Below, one piece after another: positions 1,256 through 5,231 of a stretch of DNA of 5,318 nt (positions are counted from its first letter, which is position 1; every line of letters starts with the position of its first letter). Source of the stretch: Nanosynbacter sp. Lineage in GTDB: Bacteria; Patescibacteriota; Saccharimonadia; Saccharimonadales; Saccharimonadaceae. The position numbers and the translations under genes were made by a program. The notes below the pieces were generated by a model. It was given only the letters and a program-made list of their open reading frames with translations. It was not told where the DNA came from and made no database searches. Location of the stretch: positions 1 through 5,318 of the forward strand of contig JARKOR010000150.1 in assembly GCA_029975625.1 (NCBI GenBank). Direction: 5' to 3'.

Positions 1256-1309
1256 CTAACGCTTCAATCAGCCGACGCTTTAGCGGTCGGCTGCATTGAT
1301 TTGTTAGGC
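1254..1309 (-). other. attC site of the blaOXA cassette
   Basis: This is a 56 bp attC on the minus strand. R'' is GCCTAAC (1309-1303), then AAATCAATGCAGCCGAC, a CGCTAAAGCG turn, GTCGGCTGATTGAAGC and R' GTTAGAT (1260-1254). The arms pair as CAATGCAGCCGAC with GTCGGCTGATTG, leaving unpaired bases of the kind that set strand choice. The R'' complement equals the TTAGGC that begins the blaOXA cassette at 2121, so the cassette runs about 862 bp (2121 to 1260). The blaOXA reading frame runs through the palindrome and stops within the site. Confidence 0.93.
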
Positions 1310-2100
1310 GGTAGTGCTCGAATGGATATAAGAATGTCCCGCGCTATAGCCTCTCTTTTATACAGATCCTCCCATCTATTGGGAGTGTCTATATTCAATG
1401 CAAAGAAAACAGGGCCAGCGGACCACTCGACCCAACCGACCCACCAGCCGTGACGGCCTTCCCATCCAGTTTTCGCACGTAATATCCAGTCTTTCTCAGC
1501 TTCAACTATCATAACATCCTTCAAAAGACGTTGATGCTCTAGCTCAAACGGAAGATCATTTTGATATAGCTTTTTTAAAAAAACCACCTGCTCTTCAGCA
1601 GAGATAGCAAGCTTTCCATCGACCCAATAAGCACCGCCCTTGGTACTAGGGTCCATATTTCCGTAGCTGATTCTACTTAGGTAGGACCGTGCTTTCTCCT
1701 CACCGATCGCCTTAGCAAATTTTTCATACACCCAGAGTGCAGAATGTCGCATAGCCGAGCGCAAGTTCTGATCTTGATTGTGCGGCGCATAACCTCTTTT
1801 CACTCCGTCCCAAGGAAATACCTGAAACTCGTCTTTAACTACTCCTGCATCTAAAGCAAAAAGAGTATGCGGAACTTTGAACGTGGAAGCTGGAGAATAG
1901 CGCTTCCCAGCGCGCGTTCTGTCATAAACACTAACCTTTTCGGCTGAAGCGCGACTATCAACGATTAGAATCGTTCCTGTCGCTTCATGTTTGTCAAAGA
2001 ATTCCTTCCATTCAGGCCTATCGAGTATTTTATCCTGAGCGAAAATTTCAGGAATAAAAAATATGGAAAGCAAAAAGAAAATGAAGTATCTAGTATGCAC
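1264..2100 (-). CDS. blaOXA: Class D beta-lactamase, OXA-2/OXA-20 clade
   Basis: This encodes a 278-residue periplasmic serine beta-lactamase that hydrolyses penicillins; its wider spectrum cannot be predicted. A signal peptide of about 21 residues (hydrophobic FIFFLLSIFFI, cleavage near IFA/QD) is followed by the catalytic S72-T-F-K75, then S120-A-L, Y146-G-N and K210-T-G, and the clade marker WWVGW (219-223). The second motif is normally S-x-V in this clade; here the Val is Leu. By memory it is closest to OXA-2, OXA-20 and OXA-46, yet the N-terminal third differs clearly from all of them, so it may be a rare or unnamed variant. The start is GTG, with AAGGAGG (2105-2111) 4 nt upstream; it is the only start preserving a full signal peptide. 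The tail KSMQPTAKASAD is attC sequence translated in frame. The gene is more AT-rich than its neighbours, which fits a separate cassette origin. Confidence 0.95.
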   Translation of the reverse strand: MHTRYFIFFLLSIFFIPEIFAQDKILDRPEWKEFFDKHEATGTILIVDSRASAEKVSVYDRTRAGKRYSPASTFKVPHTLFALDAGVVKDEFQVFPWDGVKRGYAPHNQDQNLRSAMRHSALWVYEKFAKAIGEEKARSYLSRISYGNMDPSTKGGAYWVDGKLAISAEEQVVFLKKLYQNDLPFELEHQRLLKDVMIVEAEKDWILRAKTGWEGRHGWWVGWVEWSAGPVFFALNIDTPNRWEDLYKREAIARDILISIRALPPNKSMQPTAKASAD

Positions 2101-3534: not shown

Positions 3535-3844
3535 ATCAACAGTCGATACGTCCACCACAAATTGCAAGTGCGAGAAGGGCGGTGCGGTCCATCCGTCTGG
3601 TTATGGCCCTGACGCTGGATATGTTGAGGTCGTCTGTCTCGTTCTGCCAACGGGTGAAAATCTCTGGTTCGAGGCTGCCAAAGGCCAGGACTATATGCGA
3701 CAAGTCATCGACAAATGGAAATCTGAGCATCCCGAATTTACCGACACTCCCTGCAACATGGGTGCGGTACACATTACGATGCCAAGGGCAAAATATAACG
3801 CCATCGGCGCACACTTTGGCCATGGTTGTTTCGTGTGGCCATAA
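3527..3844 (+). CDS. Hypothetical cassette protein, 105 residues
   Basis: I do not recognise this protein. The ATG at 3527 follows AAGGGGG (3514-3520) by 6 nt; a GTG at 3524 would add one residue. The product has no signal peptide or membrane segment. Six Cys are seen: C2, the C13-K-C15 pair, C37, C76 and C101, and late His residues at 96 and 99 (HFGHGCF), so metal or redox chemistry is conceivable but unproven. The middle part, YVEVVCLVLPTGENLWFEAAKGQDYMRQVIDKW, looks like a beta-hairpin followed by a helix. The stop codon lies in the R'' core of the following attC, typical of a cassette gene. It is the first gene of the plus-strand array and diverges from ereA. Confidence 0.75.
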   Translation: MCKSTVDTSTTNCKCEKGGAVHPSGYGPDAGYVEVVCLVLPTGENLWFEAAKGQDYMRQVIDKWKSEHPEFTDTPCNMGAVHITMPRAKYNAIGAHFGHGCFVWP

Positions 3845-3898
3845 CAAAAAGGGTAAGCGGCGCGGCTGTTTCGCGTCCGCTTGACCTGCTGGTTATGC
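3839..3898 (+). other. attC site of the first plus-strand cassette
   Basis: This is a 60 bp attC with R'' CCATAAC (3839-3845), an imperfect palindrome (AAGCGGCGCG...CGCGTCCGCTT around a GCTGTTT turn) and R' GTTATGC (3892-3898). It overlaps the stop codon of the upstream gene. The next cassette begins at TTATGC (3893). Confidence 0.9.
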
Positions 3899-3909
3899 GA
3901 TTTATCAAC

Positions 3910-3916
3910 AAGGAGG
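3910..3916 (+). promoter_or_regulatory. Ribosome binding site of the 3922 gene
   Basis: AAGGAGG lies 5 nt before ATG 3922. It decides that start over the in-frame ATG at 3895 in the attC core. Confidence 0.75.
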
Positions 3917-3921
3917 AACTT

Positions 3922-4218
3922 ATGACTGGCAATGAAGACTTGACCGTACAATTTGGTGAAGATCCTCCGTGGGACGATCTTCCGCTGATATTCGACTCCT
4001 GGACATGCCGCTTTTGCGGCGGGACATTCGCGGATCGTACACTTGCAATCAAGCACGCCATTGATTGCGATGATAATGAAGATGTGCATTCGTGCGCCAC
4101 CTGTGCATCGTATGAGATCGGTGAGGACACGCGAGATGGATACCGTCACATCTGCAAGCGGAACCCAAAACGAATGGACACATGGATGAAACATTGCCCG
4201 GAGTGGATTGGAGCATAA
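3922..4218 (+). CDS. Putative zinc-binding cassette protein, 98 residues
   Basis: The family is unknown to me, but two metal-site patterns are clear. The first is C29-x2-C32-x12-H45-x3-C49 (CRFCGGTFADRTLAIKHAIDC), shaped like a C2H2/C2HC zinc finger. The second is C58-x2-C61-x16-C78-x13-C92. The acidic N-terminus (GEDPPWDD) and absence of a signal peptide suggest a cytoplasmic protein, perhaps binding nucleic acid or another protein. The start at 3922 has AAGGAGG. The frame is also open to the core-site ATG at 3895, which would add nine residues (MRFINKEEL). The stop lies in the R'' core of the attC. The cassette is about 373 bp (3893-4265) and intact. Both core ends match (GCATAAC with TTATGC), so it should be excisable. 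Confidence 0.85.
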   Translation: MTGNEDLTVQFGEDPPWDDLPLIFDSWTCRFCGGTFADRTLAIKHAIDCDDNEDVHSCATCASYEIGEDTRDGYRHICKRNPKRMDTWMKHCPEWIGA

Positions 4219-4271
4219 CGACCAAGCACAGCGGCGGGCGTAGCACGTCCGTCTGCTGCGGCTTGTTATGG
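4213..4271 (+). other. attC site of the zinc-protein cassette
   Basis: This is a 59 bp attC with R'' GCATAAC (4213-4219), arms GCACAGCGGCGGGCG and CGTCCGTCTGCTGC, and R' GTTATGG (4265-4271). It overlaps the upstream stop codon. The next cassette begins TTATGGGC, matching GCCCATAAC at 5129-5137. Confidence 0.9.
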
Positions 4272-4291
4272 GCTGGTGGGCACAATGCTGA
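4268..4291 (+). CDS. 7-codon leader ORF from core-site ATG, overlapping methyltransferase start
   Basis: The ATG in the core GTTATGG opens MGWWAQC and stops at TGA 4289-4291. The methyltransferase ATG (4285) falls in the same stretch (ATGCTGA). This is the same arrangement as before ereA and qac. The frame is very short, so it counts only as part of the pattern. Confidence 0.25.
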   Translation: MGWWAQC

Positions 4292-5127
4292 AAACAGGAC
4301 ACTTATTTGCAGGAGGCGGCGGTGGATTACTTGCAGACCTCATTTTGGGACACCAACCCTGCTTTGCTGTCGAGTGGGATGCTAACTGCTGCCAAACCCT
4401 CCGTAACCGTGCTGCCGATGGCTGGTTCCCTGGTCTGCGGGTGTACGAAGGAGACATTCGGCTGTTCGATCCATCCGACTGGAAAGGCCGAGTGGATTGC
4501 ATCCATGCGGGGTTCCCTTGCCAGGATATTAGCGCAGCAGGAAAAGGCGCGGGAATCACGGGAGCGCGAAGCGGCCTTGTCAGTGAGGTTTTCCGAACAA
4601 TTGACGCTGTTGACCCCATGTATGTCTTCCTCGAAAACAGCCCAAGAATCCGAACGCGAGGCCGGCACGTTGTCATTGCCGAACTTGTGGCGAGGGGATA
4701 CGCCTGGCGTGATGGAATACTTGCCGCGTCTGATGTTGGAGCATGGCACTACCGGGACCGCTGGTGGCTGCTTGCTGCCAACGCTGACGGTCTGCGGCAA
4801 CTACAACAGAAAGGGTGCCTCTCCGACGAGTGGCGACGGGCTTATCACGGCGCTGAAGAAGTTGCCGACGTTATGCGCCAGGGATGCCCGGACGGTGGCA
4901 GGATCACAGCCACCACGACGAGCGGCGACGAGCGGCGACCCGTTGACGTGGCACCTTGGGAAGAAACTACCACCGGAGAAGCGGCGTGGTTTGAAGCTGA
5001 ACCCGATGTGGGCCGCTTGGTTTATGGGGTGGCCGATGAATTGGTTCCGGGTGCGGTGAAGGCGCTCGGAAATGGACAGGGACCATTACAGGCCGCTACG
5101 GCGTTCGCCATACTGAGCAGTCTGTGA
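4285..5127 (+). CDS. C5-cytosine DNA methyltransferase
   Basis: This is a 280-residue enzyme transferring methyl from SAM to C5 of cytosine in DNA. Motif I is HLFAGGGGGLLADL (6-19). Motif IV is GFPCQDIS with catalytic C79. Motif VI is FLENSP (E117). Motif VIII is DVGAWHYRDRWWLLA (150-164). Motifs IX-X are DVGRLVYGVADELV and KALGNGQGP (259-267). The target-recognition part (about 165-240) is short, as in phage-type Dcm enzymes; the target is unknown. The start is uncertain: ATG 4285 has only a weak GGTGGG before it, and GTG 4276 would add three residues. No restriction gene or repair partner is present, so it is probably an orphan or anti-restriction methylase carried as a cassette (4266-5175, about 910 bp). 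A second long frame lies inside this gene. Confidence 0.92.
   Translation: MLKTGHLFAGGGGGLLADLILGHQPCFAVEWDANCCQTLRNRAADGWFPGLRVYEGDIRLFDPSDWKGRVDCIHAGFPCQDISAAGKGAGITGARSGLVSEVFRTIDAVDPMYVFLENSPRIRTRGRHVVIAELVARGYAWRDGILAASDVGAWHYRDRWWLLAANADGLRQLQQKGCLSDEWRRAYHGAEEVADVMRQGCPDGGRITATTTSGDERRPVDVAPWEETTTGEAAWFEAEPDVGRLVYGVADELVPGAVKALGNGQGPLQAATAFAILSSL
4311..4316 (+). promoter_or_regulatory. Possible internal ribosome site AGGAGG
   Basis: AGGAGG lies 5 nt before the GTG at 4322, the likely start of the inner overlapping frame. The same bases encode Gly residues of motif I in the methyltransferase, so the match may be fortuitous. Confidence 0.35.
4322..5059 (+). CDS. Overlapping ORF inside the methyltransferase gene, phage-type Trp-rich protein
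   Basis: A 245-codon frame, shifted by one relative to the methyltransferase, runs without stop from 4292 to 5059. GTG 4322 has AGGAGG 5 nt upstream; TTG 4307 would give 250 residues. The product has features I associate with a family of phage proteins usually annotated near or as DNA methylases: FGCSIHPTGKAEWIASMRGSLARI, FSEQLTLL...SSSKTAQ, LWRGDTPGVMEYLPRLM, LPTLTVCGNYNRKGASPTSGDG and the C-terminal LNPMWAAWFMGWPMNW. No catalytic motif is visible in it. It could be a genuine dual-coding gene, or a shadow of a conserved methyltransferase whose codon pattern keeps this frame open and which has been annotated repeatedly elsewhere. I cannot decide between these by eye. Confidence 0.4.
   Translation: MDYLQTSFWDTNPALLSSGMLTAAKPSVTVLPMAGSLVCGCTKETFGCSIHPTGKAEWIASMRGSLARILAQQEKARESREREAALSVRFSEQLTLLTPCMSSSKTAQESEREAGTLSLPNLWRGDTPGVMEYLPRLMLEHGTTGTAGGCLLPTLTVCGNYNRKGASPTSGDGLITALKKLPTLCARDARTVAGSQPPRRAATSGDPLTWHLGKKLPPEKRRGLKLNPMWAAWFMGWPMNWFRVR
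4921..4940 (+). repeat. 10-bp tandem repeat in the methyltransferase gene
   Basis: AGCGGCGACG is followed by AGCGGCGACC. Because 10 is not a multiple of 3, the unit is read in two phases. It lies in the variable recognition region, so a slippage-derived length change is possible. Confidence 0.7.
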
Positions 5128-5130
5128 GGC

Positions 5131-5181
5131 CCATAACGGCCTCGCGCTGACCCGCTCGCCGGGTCGTGCGCGTGGTTGGAA
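5131..5181 (+). other. attC site of the methyltransferase cassette
   Basis: This is a 51 bp attC with R'' CCATAAC (5131-5137), arms GCGCTGACCCG and CGGGTCGTGCGC around CTCGC, and R' GTTGGAA (5175-5181). R' departs from GTTRRRY at its last base, which belongs to the next cassette. It starts three bases after the methyltransferase stop. Confidence 0.8.
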
Positions 5182-5231
5182 ATACCCCCTCTCCGCTGCG
5201 AGATTTGACGCTGGAGGGGAAGGAGAAAGAT

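What the first reader, a model, noticed from the sequence alone, without database searches (positions are those of the whole stretch)
4292..5059. Long second reading frame inside the C5-methyltransferase gene
An uninterrupted 256-codon window in the +1-shifted frame spans almost the whole gene. It has AGGAGG and a GTG at proper spacing. Its product has motifs that I recall from separate phage proteins (LWRGDTPGV, VCGNYNRKG, LNPxWxxWxMGWPxxW). The methyltransferase motifs IV, VIII and IX are intact in the other frame, so both frames look protein-like. This is either a real dual-coding gene, an unusual product for a 910 bp cassette, or a widespread annotation artefact. Either answer is useful.
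Basis: partly seen in the sequence, partly recalled or inferred. Interest (0 to 1): 0.75.

Follow-up and report, generated by a model that had tools for sequence, protein, structure and literature searches.

The report
Methyltransferase subunit hidden in second frame
One stretch of DNA encodes most of a DNA-methylating enzyme in one reading frame and, in the overlapping shifted frame, a second protein sequence that selection has kept intact and that is likely the enzyme's missing DNA-recognising part, so annotation that records only one gene here would miss half of a two-part enzyme.

Summary
The second frame is real. Frame 1 (F1, nt 4285-5127) has C5-methyltransferase motifs I-VIII and X. The +1 frame (F2, 4292-5059) has recognition-like LPTLT modules and a motif IX-like block. 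Of 65 non-identical viral homologues fetched by F1 alone, 60 keep F2 open over at least 80% of the gene; none keeps the third frame open. F2 is open in 0 of 91 neighbouring genes. Synonymous-codon shuffles predict 120.7 F2 stops over residues 75-164 of 60 viral genes; 0 occur. Substitutions show F1 selected in I-VIII, F2 in the recognition region and motif IX. F1 fourfold-site divergence is 0.42-0.44 outside the overlap and 0.08 over F2's motif IX. In 24 of 79 bacterial loci F1 ends after motif VIII and F2 carries IX and X. The layout matches two-polypeptide enzymes: M.EcoHK31I (IX alone in the small subunit) and M.AquI. Most likely a nested alpha/beta methyltransferase with recognition in beta. 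Complex formation, activity and the F2 start are untested. A 99.2% identical two-cassette block sits in a phage contig.

The parts
4285..5127 (+). F1: C5-cytosine methyltransferase, large (alpha) subunit, 280 aa; motifs I-VIII and X, no motif IX
   Evidence: PF00145 E 1.1e-27 over residues 6-172 of the 283-aa reading from 4276; phrog_363 E 5e-48; motif positions; AF2 large-domain fold like M.HhaI, residues 189-264 with pLDDT under 50
4292..5059 (+). F2 (+1 frame): predicted small (beta) subunit, stop-free 4292-5056, stop 5057-5059
   Evidence: stop depletion, substitution classes, fourfold-site constraint, 391 protein relatives at E <= 0.001
4311..4316 (+). AGGAGG, candidate Shine-Dalgarno for F2 (lies in the Gly codons of motif I)
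   Evidence: sequence; an F2 start codon with an SD core before residue 30 in 31 of 60 near relatives
4322..4324 (+). GTG, candidate F2 start (245 aa); unproven
   Evidence: GTG here in 22 of 60 near relatives, 12 with an SD core; database proteins P0001 and P0004-P0006 are 245 aa long
4418..4420 (+). ATG, alternative F2 start (213 aa)
   Evidence: ATG in 17 of 60 near relatives
4505..4507 (+). ATG, alternative F2 start (184 aa)
   Evidence: ATG in 51 of 60 near relatives, none with an SD core
4300..4326 (+). F1 motif I (AdoMet binding)
   Evidence: HLFAGGGGG
4510..4524 (+). F1 motif IV, catalytic GFPCQ
4627..4644 (+). F1 motif VI (FLENSP)
4747..4761 (+). F1 motif VIII (HYRDR)
5059..5085 (+). 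F1 motif X (KALGNGQGP), begins at the last base of the F2 stop
4769..4816 (+). F2 first recognition-like module (CLLPTLTVCGNYNRKG)
   Evidence: near-invariant in the 22-sequence F2 alignment, variable in the 25-sequence F1 alignment
4862..4885 (+). F2 second recognition-like module (LPTLCARD)
4988..5047 (+). F2 motif IX-like block (GLKLNPMWAAWFMGWPMNWF)
   Evidence: F1 fourfold-site divergence falls to 0.077 over 4999-5040; in split relatives the same block sits before motif X in one chain
4213..4271 (+). attC-like site upstream of the methyltransferase cassette
   Evidence: 59 bp, TAAC...GTTA ends, folds (relaxed pattern)
3839..3898 (+). attC-like site of the preceding cassette
   Evidence: 60 bp (relaxed pattern)

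Best explanation
This is a dual-coding gene: frame 1 encodes the catalytic subunit of a C5-cytosine methyltransferase (motifs I-VIII and X), and the +1 frame nested in it encodes a second, selected protein sequence that is likely the partner subunit carrying the target-recognition modules and motif IX. In the proposed mechanism both proteins are made from one mRNA, beta by a start inside the gene, and they assemble into one methyltransferase: alpha supplies AdoMet binding, catalysis and motif X, and beta supplies base recognition and motif IX. Shown here: across relatives both frames are kept open and are selected, and the selected frame switches from F1 to F2 after motif VIII and back to F1 at motif X. 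Inferred: translation of F2 and its start site, complex formation, which subunit reads the DNA, and methylation itself. The F1 stretch between VIII and X shows no purifying selection and is predicted disordered, so it is probably a linker that must only stay open so that alpha reaches motif X.
For: Openness: 60 of 65 non-identical viral genes fetched by F1 alone have F2 open over at least 80%, third frame 0 of 65; longest F2 ORF beyond shuffles (p<=0.05) in 64 of 65. Neighbour genes: 0 of 91 with the +1 frame open; their +1 stops match the shuffles, 912 against 918.5. Stop depletion in 60 viral genes: residues 75-110 0 against 44.7, 111-164 0 against 76.0, 165-236 3 against 54.4, and nearer expectation past the F2 end, 36 against 47.5. 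Selection in 60 independent pairs: F1 ratio 0.33 in I-VIII, 1.29 in the recognition region, 1.08 at IX; F2 ratio 1.09, 0.64, 0.44; past the F2 end F1 third positions vary most again. Fourfold F1 sites in 73 pairs: 0.42 and 0.44 outside, 0.31 over residues 61-160, 0.20 in the recognition region, 0.077 at residues 239-252. Identity of F2: of 42 bacterial loci with a short alpha, 39 have an F2 ORF that overlaps alpha by at least 60 codons and runs at least 100 codons past its stop; in 24 of 79 bacterial loci F2 holds IX and X while F1 ends at 161-200 aa with its motif VIII (examples). The family phrog_116 matches F1 and then such an F2 product one after the other in one chain (profile 206-375 and 409-491 of 779); phrog_1008 'DNA methyltransferase' is the family of F2 relatives. 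Layout as in M.EcoHK31I.
Against: No protein or ribosome data. Over I-VIII F2 shows no purifying selection when only F1-nonsynonymous changes are compared (1.09 [0.99-1.20]), so its N-terminal half rests on stop depletion and fourfold sites, and the fourfold signal there is uneven (0.38-0.41 at residues 71-98 and 155-168). Bacterial genes show it less: longest F2 ORF beyond shuffles in 37 of 79. The null is not perfect: 11 of 91 neighbour genes also have a +1 ORF longer than 95% of their shuffles. In the window's near relatives alone the first-over-third position excess in the recognition region is 19 pairs against 8. The F2 start is unresolved: 6 of 60 near relatives have an F2 stop past residue 17, the last at residue 39. 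The AF2 model of F2 alone is poor (mean pLDDT 46.5); the F2 profile finds no PDB chain. The window's own F2 matches PHROGs only weakly (best E 0.0076) and has no tblastn match in 50,697 phage records; the link runs through relatives. F2 was never found apart from alpha (80 of 80). The window's alpha has Gly at motif X residue 266, where Val is nearly invariant, so this copy may be impaired or carry a sequencing error.
Confidence: 0.85

Rival explanations
1. F2 is a shadow: an accidental open frame kept by F1 amino-acid and codon constraints, with no product.
For: F2 was never seen without F1 (80 of 80 loci); in I-VIII the F2 ratio among F1-nonsynonymous changes is 1.09; in GC-rich actinobacterial genes other frames are often open too (third frame in 12 of 79 bacterial loci).
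Against: Shuffles of the gene's own synonymous codons predict far more F2 stops; neighbouring genes fit the same null in total, 912 against 918.5; the recognition region is selected in F2 rather than F1; fourfold sites are nearly frozen over the F2 motif IX.
Confidence: 0.03
2. Programmed +1 frameshifting: ribosomes start in F1 and some shift into F2 near motif VIII, making one chain with I-VIII, recognition region and IX; unshifted ribosomes make the F1 chain with X.
For: Natural fusions of the F1 N half to the F2 C half exist (P0093, P0181; L207); the selected frame switches at motif VIII.
Against: A late shift does not need F2 open upstream, yet no F2 stop occurs over residues 75-164 in 60 viral genes (0 against 120.7); in Salmonella phage S9-5 and a Leptospira plasmid F2 has its own ATG four bases after the alpha start. 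No slippery site was sought.
Confidence: 0.1
3. F2 is a real overlapping protein with a function unrelated to the methyltransferase.
For: No Pfam or NCBIfam family is hit by the window's F2; several PHROGs matched by F2 relatives have no assigned function.
Against: In split relatives the F2 ORF contains motif X after the same IX-like block; phrog_116 joins both kinds of sequence in one chain.
Confidence: 0.03

Closest known systems
M.EcoHK31I (YGGCCR), two-polypeptide C5-methyltransferase
   Same: Large subunit with motifs I-VIII and X, motif IX alone in a smaller polypeptide (passage in PMC3404938). That its small subunit is read from another frame inside the large gene is my recollection of Lee et al. 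1995, which is not held.
   Different: There the target-recognition domain is predicted in the large subunit; here the recognition region is selected in the F2 frame, not in F1. Specificity here unknown. No EcoHK31I sequence was compared.
M.AquI (CYCGRG), two-polypeptide C5-methyltransferase
   Same: Large subunit with I-VIII, small subunit with motifs IX and X (passage in PMC3404938). Matches the Streptomyces-type relatives.
   Different: In the window motif X is in the large subunit and the small one is fully nested.
PHROG 1008, 363 and 116 (phage DNA methyltransferases)
   Same: 363 matches F1 residues 3-279, 1008 matches F2 relatives, 116 holds both kinds of sequence in one chain.
   Different: The library's descriptions do not say that 363-like and 1008-like proteins can share one stretch of DNA. 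The window's own F2 matches 1008 only at E 0.094.
M.HhaI and M.HaeIII, single-chain C5-methyltransferases
   Same: F1 residues about 1-168 align by sequence and fold.
   Different: Single chain with its own small domain (general knowledge); F1 lacks one.

Membership tests
C5-cytosine DNA methyltransferase (F1) | Motifs I, IV (PCQ), VI (EN), VIII and X in order | tested here: met
C5-cytosine DNA methyltransferase (F1) | Recognition domain and motif IX in the same chain | tested here: not met
   No IX pattern in the window's F1; region 165-236 unselected in F1 across pairs, predicted disordered
M.EcoHK31I-type split methyltransferase | Large subunit with I-VIII and X, motif IX only in the second polypeptide | tested here: met
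   Window by position. Pattern scan of 65 viral genes: X in F1 and IX in F2 in 46, plus 4 with an extra IX-like match in F1; 5 more show a divergent IX in F2 by eye; 10 do not fit
M.EcoHK31I-type split methyltransferase | Recognition domain in the large subunit (published as a prediction) | tested here: not met
   Selection there acts on F2: F2 0.64, F1 1.29
M.EcoHK31I-type split methyltransferase | Both polypeptides needed for methylation | not testable with these tools
   needs expression
M.EcoHK31I-type split methyltransferase | YGGCCR specificity | not testable with these tools
   -
M.AquI-type split methyltransferase | Small subunit carries IX and X | tested here: not met
   In the window X is in F1; met in 24 of 79 bacterial relatives and 1 of 65 viral ones
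Same-strand overlapping gene pair | Both frames under purifying selection | tested here: met
   weaker for F2 over motifs I-VIII
Same-strand overlapping gene pair | Both products detected | not testable with these tools
   no proteomics

The most novel reading that the evidence does not exclude
A whole phage-spread family of C5-methyltransferases is encoded as a nested pair: the second frame encodes a recognition subunit with a variable number of LPTxT modules (0-7 per gene among 159 genes), so recognition can lengthen by whole modules while both frames stay open, and one-frame annotation drops one of the two subunits.
Probability: 0.6. Interest if true: 0.8.

Novelty: new variant of a known kind. 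Interest (0 to 1): 0.66.

Why it matters
Naturally split C5-methyltransferases are described as exceptions (M.AquI, M.EcoHK31I; passage in PMC3404938). Here the nested arrangement is the usual one among the nearest viral relatives sampled, and the five annotated dual-frame records looked at carry one gene only over the pair: for example the methyltransferase alone in Salmonella phage S9-5, the second frame alone in Pseudomonas phage phPA-G. If beta carries recognition, methylation specificity cannot be predicted or tested from the annotated protein, and cloning only that protein would give a dead enzyme. It is also a long same-strand overlap in bacteria and phages in which selection on both frames can be measured, and an experiment in a laboratory strain would settle it.

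Tried and rejected
Shadow ORF: rejected by codon shuffles, neighbour-gene controls and substitution classes. F2 coded apart from a methyltransferase: not found, 0 of 80 loci. Late frameshifting only: disfavoured by F2 stop depletion upstream of motif VIII. Structure of F2 alone: AF2 uninformative; no PDB match by sequence. Close DNA relatives: none in E. coli genomes (blastn) or plasmids (megablast); F2 by tblastn in the phage collection: none. The first genome-contig scan with the single F1 protein found no relative; the scan with an alignment did. A first motif pattern scan chose the wrong F2 segment in some genes and was replaced. Strict attC patterns missed the sites that a relaxed pattern found. 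Inverted-repeat search found nothing. Papers: nothing on this arrangement beyond EcoHK31I and AquI mentions in searches, which cover open-licence papers only; the original EcoHK31I paper is not held.

Full report
What is there. The gene at 4285-5127 encodes a 280-residue C5-cytosine methyltransferase (F1). The +1 frame (F2) is stop-free from 4292 to the stop at 5057-5059; AGGAGG at 4311-4316 and GTG at 4322 would give 245 residues. The third frame has 14 stops in the same span. F1 has motifs I, IV, VI, VIII and X but no motif IX; the block that looks like motif IX is in F2 at 4988-5047. Pfam finds the methyltransferase domain in F1 only over residues 6-172 (of the reading from 4276) and nothing in F2.

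Relatives. F2 has 391 database relatives at E <= 0.001 (best 120 listed); F1 has 6409 among 7996 scored candidates. The viral scan with F2 kept the 80 best of 147 loci; all 80 also code the methyltransferase, overlapping, with F2 = F1 + 1, so F2 was never found alone. To avoid that selection, loci were fetched again with an F1 alignment: the 80 best of 555 viral loci and the 80 best of 253 bacterial ones. Of the 80 viral genes 15 were identical to genes already held or to each other and were dropped; of the remaining 65 (some still close to one another), F2 is open over at least 80% of the gene in 60, the third frame in none. Of the 80 bacterial loci 79 were usable, with F2 open in 55 and the third frame in 12; many are GC-rich actinobacteria, where open frames are cheap.

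More than chance. With the synonymous codons of each gene shuffled 300 times, the longest F2 ORF lies beyond 95% of shuffles in 64 of 65 viral genes, 67 of 68 other loci fetched by F2, but only 37 of 79 bacterial genes; the third frame shows no stop depletion in any of the 65. By region, 60 viral genes of at least 700 bases have 0 F2 stops in residues 75-110 (44.7 expected), 0 in 111-164 (76.0), 3 in 165-236 (54.4), but 36 past the F2 end (47.5); residues 1-20 are depleted in these (10 against 41.2) but not in the loci fetched by F2 (40 against 42.6). Ninety-one other ORFs from the same loci: none has its +1 frame open over 80%, two have the other frame open. Their +1 stops, 912, match the shuffles, 918.5; 5 of 91 are short of stops at p <= 0.05 and 11 of 91 have a long +1 ORF by that test, so the null is sound in total, slightly loose for ORF length.

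Which frame is selected where. In 60 independent pairs drawn from all three sets (70-98.5% identical over residues 1-164), third positions of F1 vary more than first in I-VIII in 60 of 60 pairs; in the recognition region first positions vary more than third in 45 pairs against 11, and at motif IX in 42 against 8; in the window's near relatives alone, aligned through F1, the recognition-region count is 19 against 8. The ratio of doubly nonsynonymous to singly nonsynonymous changes gives F1 0.33 [0.30-0.35] in I-VIII, 1.29 [1.16-1.44] in the recognition region and 1.08 [0.83-1.34] at IX; F2 gives 1.09 [0.99-1.20], 0.64 [0.54-0.75] and 0.44 [0.34-0.58]. Against the reading: over I-VIII this ratio shows no F2 constraint. 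There the evidence is stop depletion and fourfold-degenerate F1 sites, whose divergence in 73 pairs is 0.42 and 0.44 outside the overlap and 0.31 over residues 61-160 (bootstrap difference -0.164 to -0.065; uneven, 0.38-0.41 at residues 71-98 and 155-168), 0.20 in the recognition region, and 0.077 over residues 239-252, the F2 motif IX.

What F2 is. In Streptomyces, other actinobacterial and spirochaete loci F1 ends after motif VIII at about 170 residues, and the F2 ORF, open inside F1, carries LPTPT modules, an IX-like block and then motif X in one chain. Of 42 bacterial loci with an F1 of at most 210 residues, 39 have an F2 ORF that overlaps F1 by at least 60 codons and extends at least 100 codons past its stop. 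By pattern scan 24 of 79 bacterial genes have both IX and X in F2, all with an F1 of 161-200 residues that includes motif VIII, while 46 of 65 viral genes have X in F1 and IX in F2, plus 4 with an extra match in F1; 5 of the rest show a divergent IX in F2 by eye, 10 do not fit. PHROG 1008 (DNA methyltransferase) is the family of F2 relatives, and PHROG 116 matches F1 and then an F2 product one after the other in one chain. So F2 most likely supplies the recognition modules and motif IX that F1 lacks. The AF2 model of F1 has an M.HhaI-like large domain and a helix at motif X, with residues 189-264 disordered; F2 alone is not modelled usefully.

How it may be expressed. In Salmonella phage S9-5 and a Leptospira plasmid F2 has an ATG four bases after the alpha start, so one ribosome site may serve both. 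In the window's clade F2 would start inside: 31 of 60 near relatives have a start with an SD core before residue 30, and the ATG at 4505 is present in 51 of 60 but without an SD core; 6 of 60 have an F2 stop past residue 17. The start is open.

Known kinds. PMC3404938 (passages) describes M.EcoHK31I as large subunit I-VIII, X and predicted recognition domain, with only motif IX in the small polypeptide, and M.AquI as split with IX-X in the small one. PMC3439449 (passage) calls M.EcoHK31I naturally split, site YGGCCR. The window works like M.EcoHK31I; the tested difference is that the recognition region is selected in F2. The published placement was a prediction, so EcoHK31I may turn out the same.

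Context. The window holds a cassette array: a QacF/L-type SMR transporter, an OXA-2/OXA-46-like class D beta-lactamase and EreA on the minus strand, then two small ORFs and the methyltransferase on the plus strand with attC-like sites. The block 3842-5140 lies at 99.2% identity in an IMG/VR phage contig with tail-fibre, anti-repressor and exonuclease genes and four attC-like sites. Phage-borne cassettes, with methyltransferases matching other Pfam domains, have been reported (PMC9892861, passages).

Noticed in passing
window 3842-5140; L002 1052-2356; L249: Two adjacent cassettes of the resistance array are 99.2% identical to a block in a 39-kb phage contig (IMGVR_UViG_3300022664_000025) with four attC-like sites beside tail-fibre, anti-repressor and exonuclease genes: a cassette block shared between a phage-type contig and a resistance cassette array.
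   Followed up: partly
window 5080-5082: Motif X codon 266 is Gly in the window but Val in the phage copy and nearly invariant in the 25-sequence alignment (one base at 5081, the only difference in the gene); it lies outside F2, whose product is identical in both.
   Followed up: no
L246 827-1555 (Pseudomonas phage VB_PaD_phPA-G): The record annotates only the second frame as a hypothetical protein; the methyltransferase itself, in the other frame, is not annotated.
   Followed up: no
P0070; L236 from 1944; L205 F2: Possible homing-endonuclease insertions in the dual-coded gene: a PF00961 domain inside an F2 protein, and HNH-like stretches by eye in two loci.
   Followed up: no
L243 1024-1783 (Mycobacterium phage Seabastian genes 75 and 76): A methyltransferase read as two annotated ORFs, split between motifs VI and VIII, with an F1-type ending including motif X in the second.
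   Followed up: partly
window 1267-2100 (-): The class D beta-lactamase resembles the OXA-2/OXA-46 families but scores below the cut-off of each OXA family listed, while passing the general class D model, so it may be a divergent member.
   Followed up: no
window 5128-5200: Identity with the phage contig ends at 5140, within the first bases of the attC after the methyltransferase; no attC was recognised there in the window by the relaxed pattern.
   Followed up: no
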